A DNA stretch of 64,000 nucleotides from a bacterium (GTDB lineage: Bacteria > Elusimicrobiota > Elusimicrobia > UBA1565 > UBA9628): positions 638,808-702,807 of the forward strand of contig JAKAQO010000001.1 in the NCBI GenBank assembly GCA_021822495.1, given 5' to 3'. Below are positions 1,683 through 5,756 of this stretch, in pieces. A model generated the notes under the pieces. It was not told the origin of the DNA. It ran no database searches and worked only from the letters and a program-made list of their open reading frames with translations. A program made the translations under genes and the position numbers. How positions within the stretch are numbered: position 1 is the stretch's first letter; every line of letters starts with the position of its first letter.

Positions 1683-1917
1683 TTATTTTTTAAGGAGGGA
1701 CACAATTCTGCGCTCAACGGAGTTGAGGCGCTCGCGGAGTTTCACTCGCGCCCGAAACAGCAACACCCGTAAATGAGTAGGGGAAATCCCCAAAATGTTA
1801 CACACGGATTCCGAACTTTCTCCCTCCGCCTCCTTAAGAAAAAAAGCTGTGCGCTGTTGGGCTGGCAAATTCTCGGTGCATTGTTCGATCATCCTCTTGA
1901 TTTCCCGCGTGAGGCTT
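1683..1917 (-). pseudogene. ECF sigma factor fragment (region 4 only)
   Basis: Only the C-terminal sigma region 4 of an extracytoplasmic-function sigma factor survives. The segment LPAQQRTAFFLKE is followed by the helix-turn-helix ESVCNILGISPTHLRVLLF. The homologous frame can be read back through SLTREIKRM to about base 1917, where it runs into the start of an unrelated gene on the other strand. An internal ATG at 1892 could yield a 69-residue peptide, but region 2, which binds core polymerase and the -10 box, is missing. I read this as a gene cut by the rearrangement that placed the metal island here. A small stand-alone HTH protein is the less likely alternative. Confidence 0.65.
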
Positions 1918-1921
1918 GGCG

Positions 1922-2089
1922 ATGAACGCGGCGCTCAAAGCCGTCTTAGGCGCGGTCATTGGGGGAGCGGCTGGGTTTATCTGGTATCGCCTCGTCGGCT
2001 GCCAGACCGGGACCTGTCCGCTTTCGTCTAATCCTTATGTTAGCGCGATGATCGGCGCCGCGATCGGCCTTATGTGGACCTTGAATTGA
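1922..2089 (+). CDS. DUF6132-like small membrane protein
   Basis: A 55-residue protein with two glycine-rich transmembrane segments (about 5-22 and 40-54) around a short loop containing GCQTGTCPLSSNP. The motif G-C-x-x-G-x-C-P followed by S-N-P is the hallmark, as I recall it, of the DUF6132 family of tiny membrane proteins. The two loop cysteines could bind a metal or exchange a disulfide. It is the first gene of the GC-rich island and points away from the merR operon. Function unknown; a role in thiol or metal homeostasis is inferred only from context and cysteines. No strong ribosome-binding site is visible. Confidence 0.65.
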   Translation: MNAALKAVLGAVIGGAAGFIWYRLVGCQTGTCPLSSNPYVSAMIGAAIGLMWTLN

Positions 2090-2174: not shown

Positions 2175-2246
2175 TTAACTCTTCTTGCAACAATCGTCTG
2201 TGTAGCAATTCTCGCAACAGCTCTTGCAACAATTTTTCTCCTCCAT
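2175..2246 (-). CDS. 23-residue cysteine-rich peptide of the merR operon
   Basis: A tiny open frame whose product has seven cysteines in 23 residues: NCCKSCCENC near the N-terminus and DDCCKKS at the end. Its ATG lies five bases after the stop of the DF-family gene. The G-rich tract AGGGGGGG, overlapping that gene's last codons, is a good Shine-Dalgarno, so translation is probably coupled. Paired cysteines with lysines and acids resemble a minimal metallothionein-like thiolate chelator. Third gene of a Hg-type merR operon, so a role in buffering soft metals such as Hg(II) is a reasonable inference. No homologue is known to me. Confidence 0.6.
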   Translation of the reverse strand: MEEKNCCKSCCENCYTDDCCKKS

Positions 2247-2251
2247 CTTAA

Positions 2252-2566
2252 TCACCCCCCCTTTTTTTCCCATCCTTGCGGTCGTCCAAGGACCGCCGCG
2301 ATTTGATCGACGCTCGGCGCGCCGCCAAAGCGGCAAGCCCCGGAGCCTCCGGCGGCGGATGCTCCCGTCGTTATTTCCTTGCTTCCGACCATGATAGTCG
2401 GAGACGGGAAGCCGCGCCATTCCGCCGGCGCGCTTTCCGATCGCAGGTCGATCTCTTCCCAAACCGGGTCAAACCCCGCCCGAGACAACGCGGTCCTCAG
2501 ATTTTGCCGGGCTTGTTCGACGTTGGGACAGCCGTCAAAATAAAGCAGTTGAACCTTGACCTTCAT
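2252..2566 (-). CDS. DF-family thiol protein (thioredoxin-like)
   Basis: A 104-residue protein opening with a beta strand and the motif YFDGCPN (Cys13), characteristic of the small DF family, whose members are selenoproteins in some bacteria. Here the position is ordinary cysteine. Further features are the SPTIMVGSKEI stretch, where a cis-proline would lie, and a second cysteine (Cys78) in GSGACRFGG. The start is the ATG overlapping the merR stop (ATGA) rather than an upstream in-frame ATG inside merR. Co-transcription with a Hg-type MerR points to metal-thiol chemistry. Exact function is not established for the family, as far as I know. Confidence 0.75.
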   Translation of the reverse strand: MKVKVQLLYFDGCPNVEQARQNLRTALSRAGFDPVWEEIDLRSESAPAEWRGFPSPTIMVGSKEITTGASAAGGSGACRFGGAPSVDQIAAVLGRPQGWEKKGG

Positions 2567-2973
2567 CGTGGTTGTTCCTCCAAACACTCCAAAATCTGAC
2601 AGGTATCGATCATCGTCTTGGTTGCGCAAGTTCGAATCAAGCGCCTGAGCGCTTTTTCCATCGCGCGCAGGCTCGCCATCTTTTCTTTCACGCTGTCGAG
2701 CCGGGCCTGGGCCTGCCGCCTGACTCCCGCGCACTGCCCGCCGTGGCGTGTCTGCAGACTTAACAATCTTGCAATTTCGTTGAGAGTAAAGCCCAACCCC
2801 TGCGCATTTTTGATAAAGCGAATCTTTTTGATAGATTCATCGCCATACAACCGGTATCCCGATTCAAGACGGCTTTCCGGACGCAATAGTCCGCGCCGCT
2901 CGTAGTAATGCAGGGTCTGGATATTCACCTTGGCGAGTCTAGCCGCCCGGCCGATGGTCAACGTTTCGCTCAT
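2563..2973 (-). CDS. merR: MerR-type Hg(II)-responsive transcription regulator
   Basis: A 136-residue MerR protein with an N-terminal winged helix (TIGRAARLAKV, then LHYYERRGLL), a dimerisation helix and a C-terminal metal-binding loop. Cys81, Cys116 and Cys125 have the same spacings (35 and 9) as the Hg-binding trio Cys82/Cys117/Cys126 of Tn501 MerR, which strongly supports Hg(II) sensing. An extra Cys130 is present. The start was set at the ATG at 2973 because AGGAGGG lies seven bases upstream; the longer frame would run through the promoter. It overlaps the DF gene by four bases. Transcription is co-directional with its targets, as in Gram-positive mer operons. Confidence 0.9.
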   Translation of the reverse strand: MSETLTIGRAARLAKVNIQTLHYYERRGLLRPESRLESGYRLYGDESIKKIRFIKNAQGLGFTLNEIARLLSLQTRHGGQCAGVRRQAQARLDSVKEKMASLRAMEKALRRLIRTCATKTMIDTCQILECLEEQPR

Positions 2974-2992
2974 ATAGCGCCCTCCTATCCAT

Positions 2993-3024
2993 AGTATAAA
3001 CCCTATACCAAGGTATAGAGTCAA
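2993..3024 (-). promoter_or_regulatory. MerR-type promoter with long spacer and operator
   Basis: Read on the minus strand: TTGACT (3019-3024), 20 bases, TATACT (2993-2998). The spacer contains the dyad CTATACC-TT-GGTATAG (3003-3018). A 19-20-base spacer with a central dyad is the signature of promoters that MerR proteins twist open when the metal is bound. It drives merR itself, so the operon should be autoregulated and metal-induced. Confidence 0.85.
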
Positions 3025-3170: not shown

Positions 3171-3533
3171 ATGGCTCGCCCCATTGCTTCCATTTGTGTC
3201 CCCAAGCCTAAGTTGAACGCGCGTCCGCTGATCGGCCTGCGTCAGGCATCCGGCCTCGAAGGGCTTTTCAAGGTCCTCGCGAATGACACTCGCCTCCGGC
3301 TCCTTCATGCCTTGGCGCGGGAAAAAGAACTCTGCGTCCTGGATATGGCCCATCGCATCGGAATGAAGCCGCAGGCGGTTTCAAATCAACTTCAGCGCCT
3401 CGTCGGCAAGCGCATTCTGGCGTCAAGACGCGAAGGTCTCCAGATTTTCTATCGAATCGTCGATCCCTGCGTGACGGAGCTGCTCGACCGAGGCCTGTGC
3501 CTTCTTGAAGATTCGGGCGGAGGCAGACCGTGA
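3171..3533 (+). CDS. ArsR/SmtB-family metal-responsive repressor
   Basis: A 120-residue winged-helix repressor. The core ANDTRLRLLHAL and the recognition helix MKPQAVSNQLQRL are diagnostic of ArsR/SmtB. Cysteines lie at 9, 55 (in ELCVLDMA, where arsenic sensors carry CxC), 100 (VDPC) and 110. Only one cysteine occupies the classical alpha-3 site, so metal would probably be held with Cys100/Cys110 of the C-terminal helix, as in other thiol-based variants. The inducer (As, Hg, Cd, Pb) cannot be decided. It heads a four-gene operon in which every junction overlaps by four bases. Confidence 0.88.
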   Translation: MARPIASICVPKPKLNARPLIGLRQASGLEGLFKVLANDTRLRLLHALAREKELCVLDMAHRIGMKPQAVSNQLQRLVGKRILASRREGLQIFYRIVDPCVTELLDRGLCLLEDSGGGRP

Positions 3534-4693
3534 ACCGCGCGGAGTTGGATTCGGCGCTCGCGCAACTGCGCGACGCGATCAAGCACAAGAAATGCTGGGT
3601 CTGCGGCTGCCAACAGTCCTTCGCCCGGACACTCCGGGAAAGCCTTGATGAGATGCCGGAAGCGGATCGTCGAGAAATCGAGCCGCTCTTGAGCCGGTCC
3701 GAAGCGACATTTCGCCCGGTCGAGTACGACTGTCTGGGCTGCAAGGTCTGCTTTCCCGCGATAGCGACGAATGCCTTGGCGGGCGCATACCCGGCCTTCG
3801 CATCCGGCGAGGGCTGCGCTGTCGGCGCCGACGACAAGGAACGCTCCGGCTGGCCGCCTCTGCCTGGCAACTATGAGGTCCGGCGTTATCAAGCCGCTGT
3901 TGCCGTCTGCACTCTCAACTCTAAGAACATGATCCGCGAAGTGGTGGACCAAAATCATCCCGAAATTGGAATCGTCGGAACGCTCAATACCGAGAACCTC
4001 GGAATCGAACGGCTCATAAAGAACATCGTCTCCAACCCCCACATCCGCTTTCTGATCCTTTGCGGGGAGGATTCCAGGCAGAAGATCGGCCACCTCCCCG
4101 GGCAATCGCTGGCAAGCCTCTTCCAGCACGGGGTCGACAAAAACGGCCGCATCATCGGCGCGGAGGGCAGGCGGCCGGCGCTCAAGAACATCGAAGTCGG
4201 CCATGTGGATCGATTTCGCATGCAGGTCGAGCTTGTGCCGATGGTTTCATCCATGAATGCGGCGGAAATCCTGCGCGCGGCCGACTCTTGTGTCGGCAGG
4301 AATCCCGGAAGATTTCCAGATAACGGGTTTGCCGCGGCCGTCCCGACGGTCCAAGCTCACCCGCCGGAACGGTTGGTTCTTGATCCCAGCGGTTATTTTG
4401 TGATTTTCCCGGACAGATCGCGACGCCGCATCATGCTTGAGCACTACACGAACGACGGCATGCTCAGCCGCGTCATTGAGGGCCGCGATATCGGCGATAT
4501 CTATGCGACCGCGATCAGCTTGGGCCTTTTGAGCCGCCTCGACCACGCCTGCTATCTGGGCAAAGAGCTTGCCAAGGCGGAAAGCGCGCTTGCCTCCGGC
4601 TCGGAATATCGGCAGGACAAGGCTCCGGACTATCGGGGCGACGCAACCGATCCAAAATGCTCGGGAAAAGGATGTTGCGGGGAGAACGCATGA
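3530..4693 (+). CDS. MtrA-like corrinoid protein with DUF4346-like C-terminus
   Basis: A 387-residue protein, GTG start overlapping the arsR stop. Residues about 112-245 match the cobamide-binding subunit MtrA of archaeal tetrahydromethanopterin S-methyltransferase (TENLGIE, then SNPHIRFLILCG, then IGHLPGQS, then GRIIGAEG). His188 in IGHLPGQ corresponds to the histidine I recall ligating cobalt in MtrA (GHITGQ), so corrin binding looks intact. The N-terminal region has two cysteine clusters, CWVCGC (22-27) and CLGCKVC (68-74), fit for Fe-S or Zn. About 260-360 resembles DUF4346, and the tail KCSGKGCCGENA is thiol-rich. No transmembrane anchor, unlike archaeal MtrA. Methyl transfer to or from a metal(loid) is my inference from the operon. 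Confidence 0.78.
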   Translation: MNRAELDSALAQLRDAIKHKKCWVCGCQQSFARTLRESLDEMPEADRREIEPLLSRSEATFRPVEYDCLGCKVCFPAIATNALAGAYPAFASGEGCAVGADDKERSGWPPLPGNYEVRRYQAAVAVCTLNSKNMIREVVDQNHPEIGIVGTLNTENLGIERLIKNIVSNPHIRFLILCGEDSRQKIGHLPGQSLASLFQHGVDKNGRIIGAEGRRPALKNIEVGHVDRFRMQVELVPMVSSMNAAEILRAADSCVGRNPGRFPDNGFAAAVPTVQAHPPERLVLDPSGYFVIFPDRSRRRIMLEHYTNDGMLSRVIEGRDIGDIYATAISLGLLSRLDHACYLGKELAKAESALASGSEYRQDKAPDYRGDATDPKCSGKGCCGENA

Positions 4694-5115
4694 GGGCCGA
4701 AACGCCGCGCCAGAAAGGGATAATTCTGGCATTGACCGCGTTGGCCGTCGCCGGAGTCCTAATCGCCAAGGGCCATTTTGGTTCCAAAGTTCCAGTTGGC
4801 GGCGATAACTCTCCAATGGCAACCCCCGCCGTCTATCTTTTCCTCGACGAATCCGATCAAGATGGCGGCTGCCGCAGGATCTATTCTTTGTTTGAGGACG
4901 CAAGATCAACGCTGCCTCCAGGCGTCCATGCGGCTAGGGTGAACGTCAACGAGGATAACGGCCTCGTCGGCAAGTTCGGAGTCCGCGTTCTTCCAACCGT
5001 CGTTTTCGTGGACAAAACTGGAAAGGTCGTTGAAAGGATCGAGGGCGAAGGGCCGGAGGTCGAGACGCGGCTGCGCTCGGCTCTGGCCGAGGCGCCTCAA
5101 CTCCTCGCTCCATGA
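4690..5115 (+). CDS. Membrane-anchored thioredoxin-like protein with a single cysteine
   Basis: A 141-residue protein with one N-terminal transmembrane helix (about 10-27) and a thioredoxin fold outside the membrane. The active-site region reads DGGCRRI, so Cys61 is alone where CxxC is usual, and VLPTVVFVD supplies the cis-proline loop (Pro102). The start was set at 4690, which overlaps the preceding stop (ATGA) and has GGGGAG upstream; an earlier in-frame ATG at 4657 lies inside the preceding gene. A monothiol could pass a thiol-bound metal or be reduced by mixed disulfide with the CcdA-like neighbour. Partner and substrate are inferred. Confidence 0.75.
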   Translation: MRAETPRQKGIILALTALAVAGVLIAKGHFGSKVPVGGDNSPMATPAVYLFLDESDQDGGCRRIYSLFEDARSTLPPGVHAARVNVNEDNGLVGKFGVRVLPTVVFVDKTGKVVERIEGEGPEVETRLRSALAEAPQLLAP

Positions 5116-5756
5116 TTCTTCCGCTTCACGACGGCGCGACCGCGTTCGGGGCCGTCCTCGTCGGAGGCATCGTCTCGGCCTTTAATCCTTGTTGCCTGTC
5201 GATGAGCCCCGCGATGATGGCGCTGGTCGCCGATCACCATGCCCGCAAACTCCACTCAGCTTTGGTGGCGACCCTCGTAATCTGCGGTTTTGCTACTACG
5301 ATGGCGGCGTTGGGAGCCCTGAGTTCCACGCTAGGCTTGATTTTTGGGCACATGGGACACGGATTCTCTTATGCGGTTTCTGCCATCCCCATCTTGATGG
5401 CTTTACAAATGCTCGGCGTTATCGACATTCATCTTTCCGTGATACGAATGGCAGGGCTCGACGGCCATTTGGGGGCGATGACGGCGGGGGCCGCATATGC
5501 CCTTGTAGTCGCTCCCTGCGCTACGCCGATTCTTGCGTCCATACTCGCCTATTCGGCATCGAAGGGCAACATCGTCTACGGGACGAGTCTGCTTTGGGTC
5601 TATGGAGTCGGATTTTGCGGGCCTCTGTGCGCGTTCGGCGCGCTTTTTGCATCGCTGCGGCGGACGAGAATGATCGGACTAAATTTGGAAAGGTTAAACG
5701 CCTTCACTGCCGTAGTTCTCATGTTGCTTGGGCTTTCTCTGCTCTGGAAAGCCTGA
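5112..5756 (+). CDS. CcdA/DsbD-type transmembrane electron carrier
   Basis: A 214-residue, six-helix membrane protein of the CcdA family, which moves reducing equivalents from cytoplasmic thioredoxin across the inner membrane. The two redox helices are visible as FNPCCLSMSP (Cys27/Cys28) and VVAPCATPI (Cys136). The adjacent cysteine pair CC is a mild variation. The ATG overlaps the thioredoxin stop (ATGA). In this operon it would reduce the anchored single-cysteine thioredoxin and so supply electrons to the corrinoid protein's pathway or to an envelope step. Cytochrome c maturation is the alternative, but no ccm genes are nearby. Confidence 0.85.
   Translation: MILPLHDGATAFGAVLVGGIVSAFNPCCLSMSPAMMALVADHHARKLHSALVATLVICGFATTMAALGALSSTLGLIFGHMGHGFSYAVSAIPILMALQMLGVIDIHLSVIRMAGLDGHLGAMTAGAAYALVVAPCATPILASILAYSASKGNIVYGTSLLWVYGVGFCGPLCAFGALFASLRRTRMIGLNLERLNAFTAVVLMLLGLSLLWKA

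What the first reader, a model, noticed from the sequence alone, without database searches (positions are those of the whole stretch)
2175..3024. Hg-type merR operon without merA: DF protein and a 23-residue cysteine peptide
MerR keeps the Hg-binding cysteine spacing (81/116/125) and a 20-base-spacer operator promoter, yet the operon has no mercuric reductase, transporter or lyase. It encodes instead a DF-family thiol protein and a translationally coupled peptide with seven cysteines in 23 residues. This suggests Hg(II) sequestration or hand-off to the neighbouring corrinoid operon.
Basis: partly seen in the sequence, partly recalled or inferred. Interest (0 to 1): 0.75.

Follow-up and report, generated by a model that had tools for sequence, protein, structure and literature searches.

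The report
Mercury operon with cysteine-rich mini-peptide
In an Elusimicrobiota genome, a second, shortened mercury-response operon keeps the sensor and switch of the cell's full mercury-detoxification operon but makes a thioredoxin-like protein and a tiny cysteine-packed peptide; similar peptides sit in three more mercury loci of the same family, suggesting an unreported mercury-binding helper.

Summary
On the minus strand are merR (2973-2563, Cys 81/116/125), a 20-bp-spacer operator (3024-2993), a DF-type thioredoxin-like protein (2566-2252) and a coupled 23-aa peptide with seven Cys (2246-2175). The locus has no merA, transporter or lyase.

The host, an Elusimicrobiota genome, carries a complete operon on another contig: merR, merTP, merA, a second Cys-rich peptide, a 63-aa gene. 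Its 32-bp operator is identical, and the genome holds only these two sites. Cys-rich peptides recur in two further relatives, one between merTP and merA, one monocistronic behind its own Mer-type operator. In relatives the DF domain follows such a MerR and is usually fused to a MerC-type Hg transporter. So DF and peptide are probably accessory Hg(II)-handling parts of a mer regulon; the peptide probably acts as a MerR-induced metallothionein-like chelator.

The window locus is a rearranged mer island: MerR is chimeric, the ECF sigma gene truncated, merTP/merA absent. Hand-off to the corrinoid operon is unsupported: that cluster has its own ArsR and is absent from 195 other relatives searched.

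No metal binding or expression is shown. Verdict: a new variant of a known kind, of moderate interest.

The parts
2993..3024 (-). Mer-type operator/promoter TTGACT-20 bp-TATACT with inner dyad CTATACC-TT-GGTATAG
   Evidence: 32-bp sequence identical at C11 mer operon; only two sites in the own genome with up to 3 mismatches, reversed-pattern control 0; near-universal before homologous merR genes of the phylum
2563..2973 (-). merR, Hg-type MerR regulator (136 aa), chimeric: residues 1-66 94% identical to the C11 MerR, residues 67-136 47%
2252..2566 (-). DF-family thioredoxin-like single-active-Cys protein (CPNV), 104 aa; start overlaps merR stop
   Evidence: NF049942 E 4.8e-11 below cut-off; conserved C13, C78 and FPSPT; thioredoxin-like model, pLDDT 75; fused to MerC in relatives
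2255..2268 (-). A7G7 run at the DF 3' end (in-frame A AAA AAG heptamer); the peptide lies in the -1 frame, so slippage or a homopolymer error could fuse DF and peptide
   Evidence: sequence itself; no experimental support
2175..2246 (-). 23-aa Cys-rich mini-peptide MEEKNCCKSCCENCYTDDCCKKS (7 Cys), 5 nt after the DF stop
   Evidence: analogues in L035, L037, L042
2105..2143 (.). Inverted repeat between peptide and convergent gene; possible shared terminator, no T run
   Evidence: fold
1922..2089 (+). Convergent small membrane-type gene (DUF6132-like, ~55 aa), also downstream of the C11 and G012 mer operons
   Evidence: 87% and 80% aa identity
1683..1892 (-). Truncated ECF sigma factor (region 4 only); full-length sigma/anti-sigma pair lies next to mer loci in relatives
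3171..5756 (+). Divergent neighbouring operon: ArsR (3171-3533), MtrA-like corrinoid-type protein (3530-4693), thioredoxin-like (4690-5115), DsbD/CcdA-type membrane protein (5112-5756); judged not part of the system
   Evidence: absent from 195 other relatives

Best explanation
This is an accessory, rearranged mer operon. MerR sits on the 20-bp-spacer operator and, on binding Hg(II), activates merR-DF-peptide together with the full merR-merTP-merA-peptide operon on another contig, which has an identical operator and a near-identical MerR DNA-binding domain. DF, a thioredoxin-fold protein with one exposed Cys, carries Hg(II) between thiols; in relatives it is the cytosolic front domain of a MerC-type importer. 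The Cys-rich mini-peptide is a metallothionein-like chelator that buffers cytosolic Hg(II) and passes it to MerA, which here lacks an NmerA domain. Shown: genes, operator identity, recurrence of such peptides in mer loci, DF-MerC fusion, absence of merA here and presence elsewhere, chimeric MerR. Inferred: Hg induction, translation of the peptide, metal binding, transfer to MerA.
For: Full mer operon in the same genome with a Cys-rich peptide right after merA and a strong SD. Operator identical over 32 bp, only two sites in the genome. MerA found above cut-off only at C11. Peptide analogues in four mer loci in four different positions, one with its own operator. Eight of ten DF genes found in the class lie directly behind such a MerR, most fused to MerC. 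MerR Cys positions align with Hg-MerR ligands. DF model is thioredoxin-like. C11 MerA has no N-terminal HMA domain. No glutathione synthetase ATP domain was found in the genome.
Against: The peptides are too short and low-complexity to prove common ancestry. The closest sister operon (G018, L036) and other merA operons (L063, L071, L072) lack one. None were found in the Nitrospira-dominated set of mer loci apart from the G012 locus already counted. MerR scores below the MerR equivalog cut-off and equally well against ZntR; Pro126 of the metal-loop motif is Gln. No expression or binding data exist.
Confidence: 0.55

Rival explanations
1. The locus is a decaying remnant of a full mer island; merR, DF and peptide are leftovers with little or no function.
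For: The ECF sigma gene is cut to region 4 and fused to the DUF6132 block by a deletion of about 610 bp relative to G012. merTP and merA are missing. G008 shows a comparable decay, DF followed by a broken MerC. Two tracts nearly identical to the C11 locus show recent recombination.
Against: merR, DF and peptide are open, the operator is identical to the C11 one, and all DF and MerR invariant residues are kept.
Confidence: 0.25
2. The peptide is not a separate product: -1 slippage at the in-frame A AAA AAG of the A7G7 run, or a one-base homopolymer error in the assembly, makes it the C-terminal Cys tail of DF.
For: The peptide frame is -1 to DF and open across the run. DF-MerC fusions end in short CxxC tails.
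Against: A separate ATG with a G-rich leader is present. Peptides in C11, G012 and G021 are free-standing, each with a good SD. No strong stimulatory hairpin just after the run.
Confidence: 0.12
3. The operon serves the neighbouring corrinoid/MtrA operon, handing Hg or methyl groups to it.
For: Divergent neighbours that share raised G+C against their flanks.
Against: The MtrA cluster has its own ArsR and promoter and is found in only this one of 196 genomes searched, while merR, DF and peptides occur without it. No MerB was found (weak because the control was silent too); genes for Hg methylation were not searched for.
Confidence: 0.04
4. The Cys codons act as a cysteine-sensing attenuator rather than encoding a useful peptide.
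For: Poly-Cys leader ORFs acting as attenuators are known in mycobacteria (own knowledge).
Against: In the window nothing lies downstream in the operon, and in G021 the peptide gene is monocistronic.
Confidence: 0.04

Closest known systems
Classical mer operon (merR-merT/P-merA; Tn501, Gram-positive and Aquificae types)
   Same: MerR with three Hg-ligand Cys, promoter with long spacer and inner dyad, co-regulated Hg genes; a complete version exists in this genome
   Different: The window copy lacks merT, merP, merA and merB and has DF plus a Cys-rich mini-peptide; a review tabulating mer gene complements (PMC3466566) names arsR, merR, P, T, C, F, E, G, H, B, D and TRASH, and its text has no match for metallothionein or cysteine-rich
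CadR-Zrd of Pseudomonas aeruginosa (PMC12301328)
   Same: A MerR-family metal sensor controls a separate gene for a small Cys-containing, metallothionein-like protein
   Different: Zn/Cd sensor; Zrd has two zinc ribbons, not a 23-aa Cys cluster
Bacterial metallothioneins (SmtA, PmtA, MymT)
   Same: Short, Cys-rich, metal-induced chelators
   Different: No Pfam or NCBIfam match; much shorter, CC and CxxC rather than the spaced SmtA pattern; metal binding untested
DF family (seleno)protein NF049942 / DUF2703
   Same: Homologous over the first 75 residues with the active-site Cys at CPN
   Different: Below the curated cut-off (42.5 against 70 bits); belongs to an Elusimicrobiota branch linked to merR and MerC
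NmerA domain of mercuric reductase
   Same: Proposed role: thiol relay that protects cells and feeds Hg(II) to the MerA core
   Different: No HMA domain; separate peptide; role inferred only

Membership tests
Hg-type MerR | Three Hg-ligand Cys (Tn501 82/117/126) | tested here: met
   C81, C116, C125 align with 5crl and are invariant in 12 homologues
Hg-type MerR | Score above NCBIfam MerR equivalog cut-off | tested here: not met
   114.3 against 150.85 bits; ZntR model scores the same
Hg-type MerR | 19-20 bp spacer promoter with inner dyad | tested here: met
Hg-type MerR | Transcriptional response to Hg(II) | not testable with these tools
   needs experiment
mer operon (detoxifying) | merA in the operon | tested here: not met
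   absent in the window operon; present at G000:C11 under the same operator
DF family NF049942 | Score above curated cut-off | tested here: not met
   42.5 against 70 bits
DF family NF049942 | Thioredoxin-like fold with active-site Cys/Sec | tested here: inconclusive
   E-H-E-E-E-H model at pLDDT 75; thioredoxins best in Foldseek but E about 5e-3; C13 conserved
Metallothionein | Short, very Cys-rich chain without aromatic core | tested here: met
   7 of 23 residues Cys, one Tyr
Metallothionein | Match to a known metallothionein family | tested here: not met
   no Pfam or NCBIfam match for any of the four peptides
Metallothionein | Binds metal through thiolate clusters | not testable with these tools
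   needs titration

The most novel reading that the evidence does not exclude
Elusimicrobiota mer regulons use MerR-induced Cys-rich micropeptides as dedicated Hg(II) buffers and donors to MerA, replacing glutathione and the NmerA domain, with a DF thioredoxin domain as relay from a MerC-type importer; the window carries a stand-alone relay-plus-chelator operon.
Probability: 0.35. Interest if true: 0.65.

Novelty: new variant of a known kind. Interest (0 to 1): 0.5.

Why it matters
If true, mer systems gain a component class that short-ORF cut-offs have hidden: MerR-regulated metallothionein-like micropeptides. This would explain how bacteria that may lack glutathione and have MerA without NmerA keep Hg(II) chelated until reduction. 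It also offers very short natural Hg-binding peptides and a recognisable operator for finding more.

Tried and rejected
Chance ORF: rejected. A merA-free organism: rejected. A CCxxCC peptide elsewhere in the own genome: only the window hit. A broader CxCCxxCC scan of relatives gave repeats and, in four genomes, a hit within a ferredoxin-type protein, not peptides (the other hits were not read). Peptides in the Nitrospira-dominated mer loci: only a repeat of the G012 Elusimicrobiota locus and weak chance hits in 803 kb. Corrinoid link: the MtrA-like protein is absent from 195 relatives. MerB in the genome: no match, but the control was silent too. Literature: no report of Cys-rich peptides in mer operons in the held library; two selenoprotein papers on the DF and Tso families were not held. 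One search was a misuse and gave nothing.

Full report
OBSERVATION. The minus-strand cluster is as described. merR runs 2973-2563, DF 2566-2252 with its ATG overlapping the merR stop, and the peptide 2246-2175, five bases after the DF stop. The promoter is TTGACT, 20 bp, TATACT with an inner dyad. MerR Cys 81, 116 and 125 align with the Cys of the solved Hg-MerR 5crl and are invariant in twelve homologues. MerR scores 114 bits against both the MerR and the ZntR models, under both cut-offs, so the Hg assignment rests on ligand positions and context. The peptide is the only ORF of its Cys density in the 64-kb window, and none arose in 4 Mb of simulated DNA of the same dinucleotide make-up.

THE SAME GENOME HAS A FULL MER OPERON. 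The window lies in a 2.2-Mb genome in 15 contigs; named relatives are Elusimicrobiota. A second MerR (72% identical) on contig C11 heads merR, merTP (MerT plus HMA), merA (528.9 bits, above the 454 cut-off), then a 25-aa peptide MNEENAKTCGCGCSCCSSEKCCCSK with a strong Shine-Dalgarno sequence, then a 63-aa gene. The 32-bp operator is identical in both operons, and no third site with up to three mismatches exists in the genome. So the window operon belongs to a two-operon mer regulon and is not a merA-free strategy.

THE PEPTIDE RECURS. In G012 a 57-aa Cys-rich ORF lies between merTP and merA. In G021 a 28-aa peptide MTESKCCCRDGCRCCETYSCCRESEKKA is divergent from merR and follows its own Mer-type promoter TTGACT-20-TACAAT. 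With the two in this genome that makes four mer loci and four different positions, all under a Mer-type promoter by position. The closest sister operon (G018) and three other merA operons lack one. In 803 kb of loci mostly from Nitrospira, the only convincing hit was the same G012 locus under its public name. No library names these peptides. They are too short to prove descent from one ancestor; association with mer is the evidence.

DF HAS A MERCURY CONTEXT. A profile of this DF branch hits ten of 196 genomes; eight hits lie directly behind a MerR of this kind. In G066, G010, G007 and G036, and by profile in G030, DF is fused to a MerC-type membrane domain (MerC E 1e-9 and 2e-5 in the two tested against Pfam, 7e-7 in one against NCBIfam). 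In G008 the MerC part is broken after DF, so a free DF can arise by loss of MerC. The DF model has the order E-H-E-E-E-H (pLDDT 75), and Foldseek lists thioredoxins first, with weak E-values. C13 (CPN), C78 and FPSPT are invariant.

A REARRANGED ISLAND. The promoter and merR codons 1-66 are about 94% identical to C11, while residues 67-136 are only 47% identical; the convergent DUF6132-like gene is 91.5% identical to its C11 counterpart. MerR is thus chimeric, consistent with recombination between the two loci. Beyond it lies only region 4 of an ECF sigma factor. In G012 the full sigma gene lies on the far side of the same DUF6132 gene, and a deletion of about 610 bp would give the window arrangement. 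This supports remnant status for the surroundings, but merR, DF and peptide remain intact.

MECHANISM. Most likely Hg(II) turns on both operons through MerR; DF relays Hg(II) between thiols; the peptide chelates cytosolic Hg(II) and can donate it to MerA. The C11 MerA has no NmerA-type HMA domain and no glutathione synthetase ATP domain was found in the genome (94.7% complete), which would leave a place for such a donor. Induction, translation, metal binding and transfer are inferred.

ALTERNATIVES. A functionless remnant is the main rival. A DF-peptide fusion through the A7G7 run at 2268-2255 (in-frame A AAA AAG, peptide in the -1 frame) is open, but the free-standing peptides elsewhere speak against it. 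A Cys attenuator is unlikely, as nothing lies downstream here. Hand-off to the corrinoid operon is not supported: that ArsR-MtrA-thioredoxin-DsbD cluster occurs in only this one of 196 genomes, though both operons share raised G+C.

KNOWN. The mer review text has no mention of metallothionein or cysteine-rich parts (PMC3466566). CadR-Zrd in P. aeruginosa (PMC12301328) is the nearest precedent, a MerR-family sensor controlling a small metallothionein-like protein. NmerA's role under glutathione depletion is known from Ledwidge 2005, seen only as a reference title.

Noticed in passing
window 3171-5756 (+): ArsR - MtrA-like fused corrinoid-type protein (MtrA plus PterinBD-DUF4346) - thioredoxin-like - DsbD/CcdA-like operon, G+C about 60% against 46-50% flanks, found in only this one of 196 relatives; function unclear, probably acquired.
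   Followed up: partly
window 1683-1892 (-); L043 8111-8707 and 7869-8144; L037, L039, L042, L063, L064, L071, L072: An ECF sigma factor with a small zf-HC2-type anti-sigma factor (CREV...CRHCxRFARQ) lies beside mer operons in many Elusimicrobiota; the window keeps only sigma region 4. A mer-linked sigma switch seems undescribed.
   Followed up: partly
L035 10060-10251; L036, L037, L063: Conserved 60-63 aa protein (VRVYxGSLWCxGCxxCPVVDY...ISVEEYNALIAHAKPI) directly after merA in four operons; no Pfam or NCBIfam match.
   Followed up: partly
L049, L054, L057, L062, L071, L072, L045, L066: Thioredoxin-like protein (EVFTAGCPVCDEAV...DLNKGCGTNECR...CCKQ) with many Cys follows DF-MerC or merA in these mer loci.
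   Followed up: no
L038-L069, many merR loci: Most relatives have merR-merTP-CopZ-type (CopZ_Nterm_CC) operons without merA directly behind, suggesting another mer variant in the phylum.
   Followed up: no
L197 810-1568 and 1465-1785 (G016): A stand-alone DF gene overlaps the start of a predicted SAM methyltransferase gene, without a nearby MerR on the short stretch seen.
   Followed up: no
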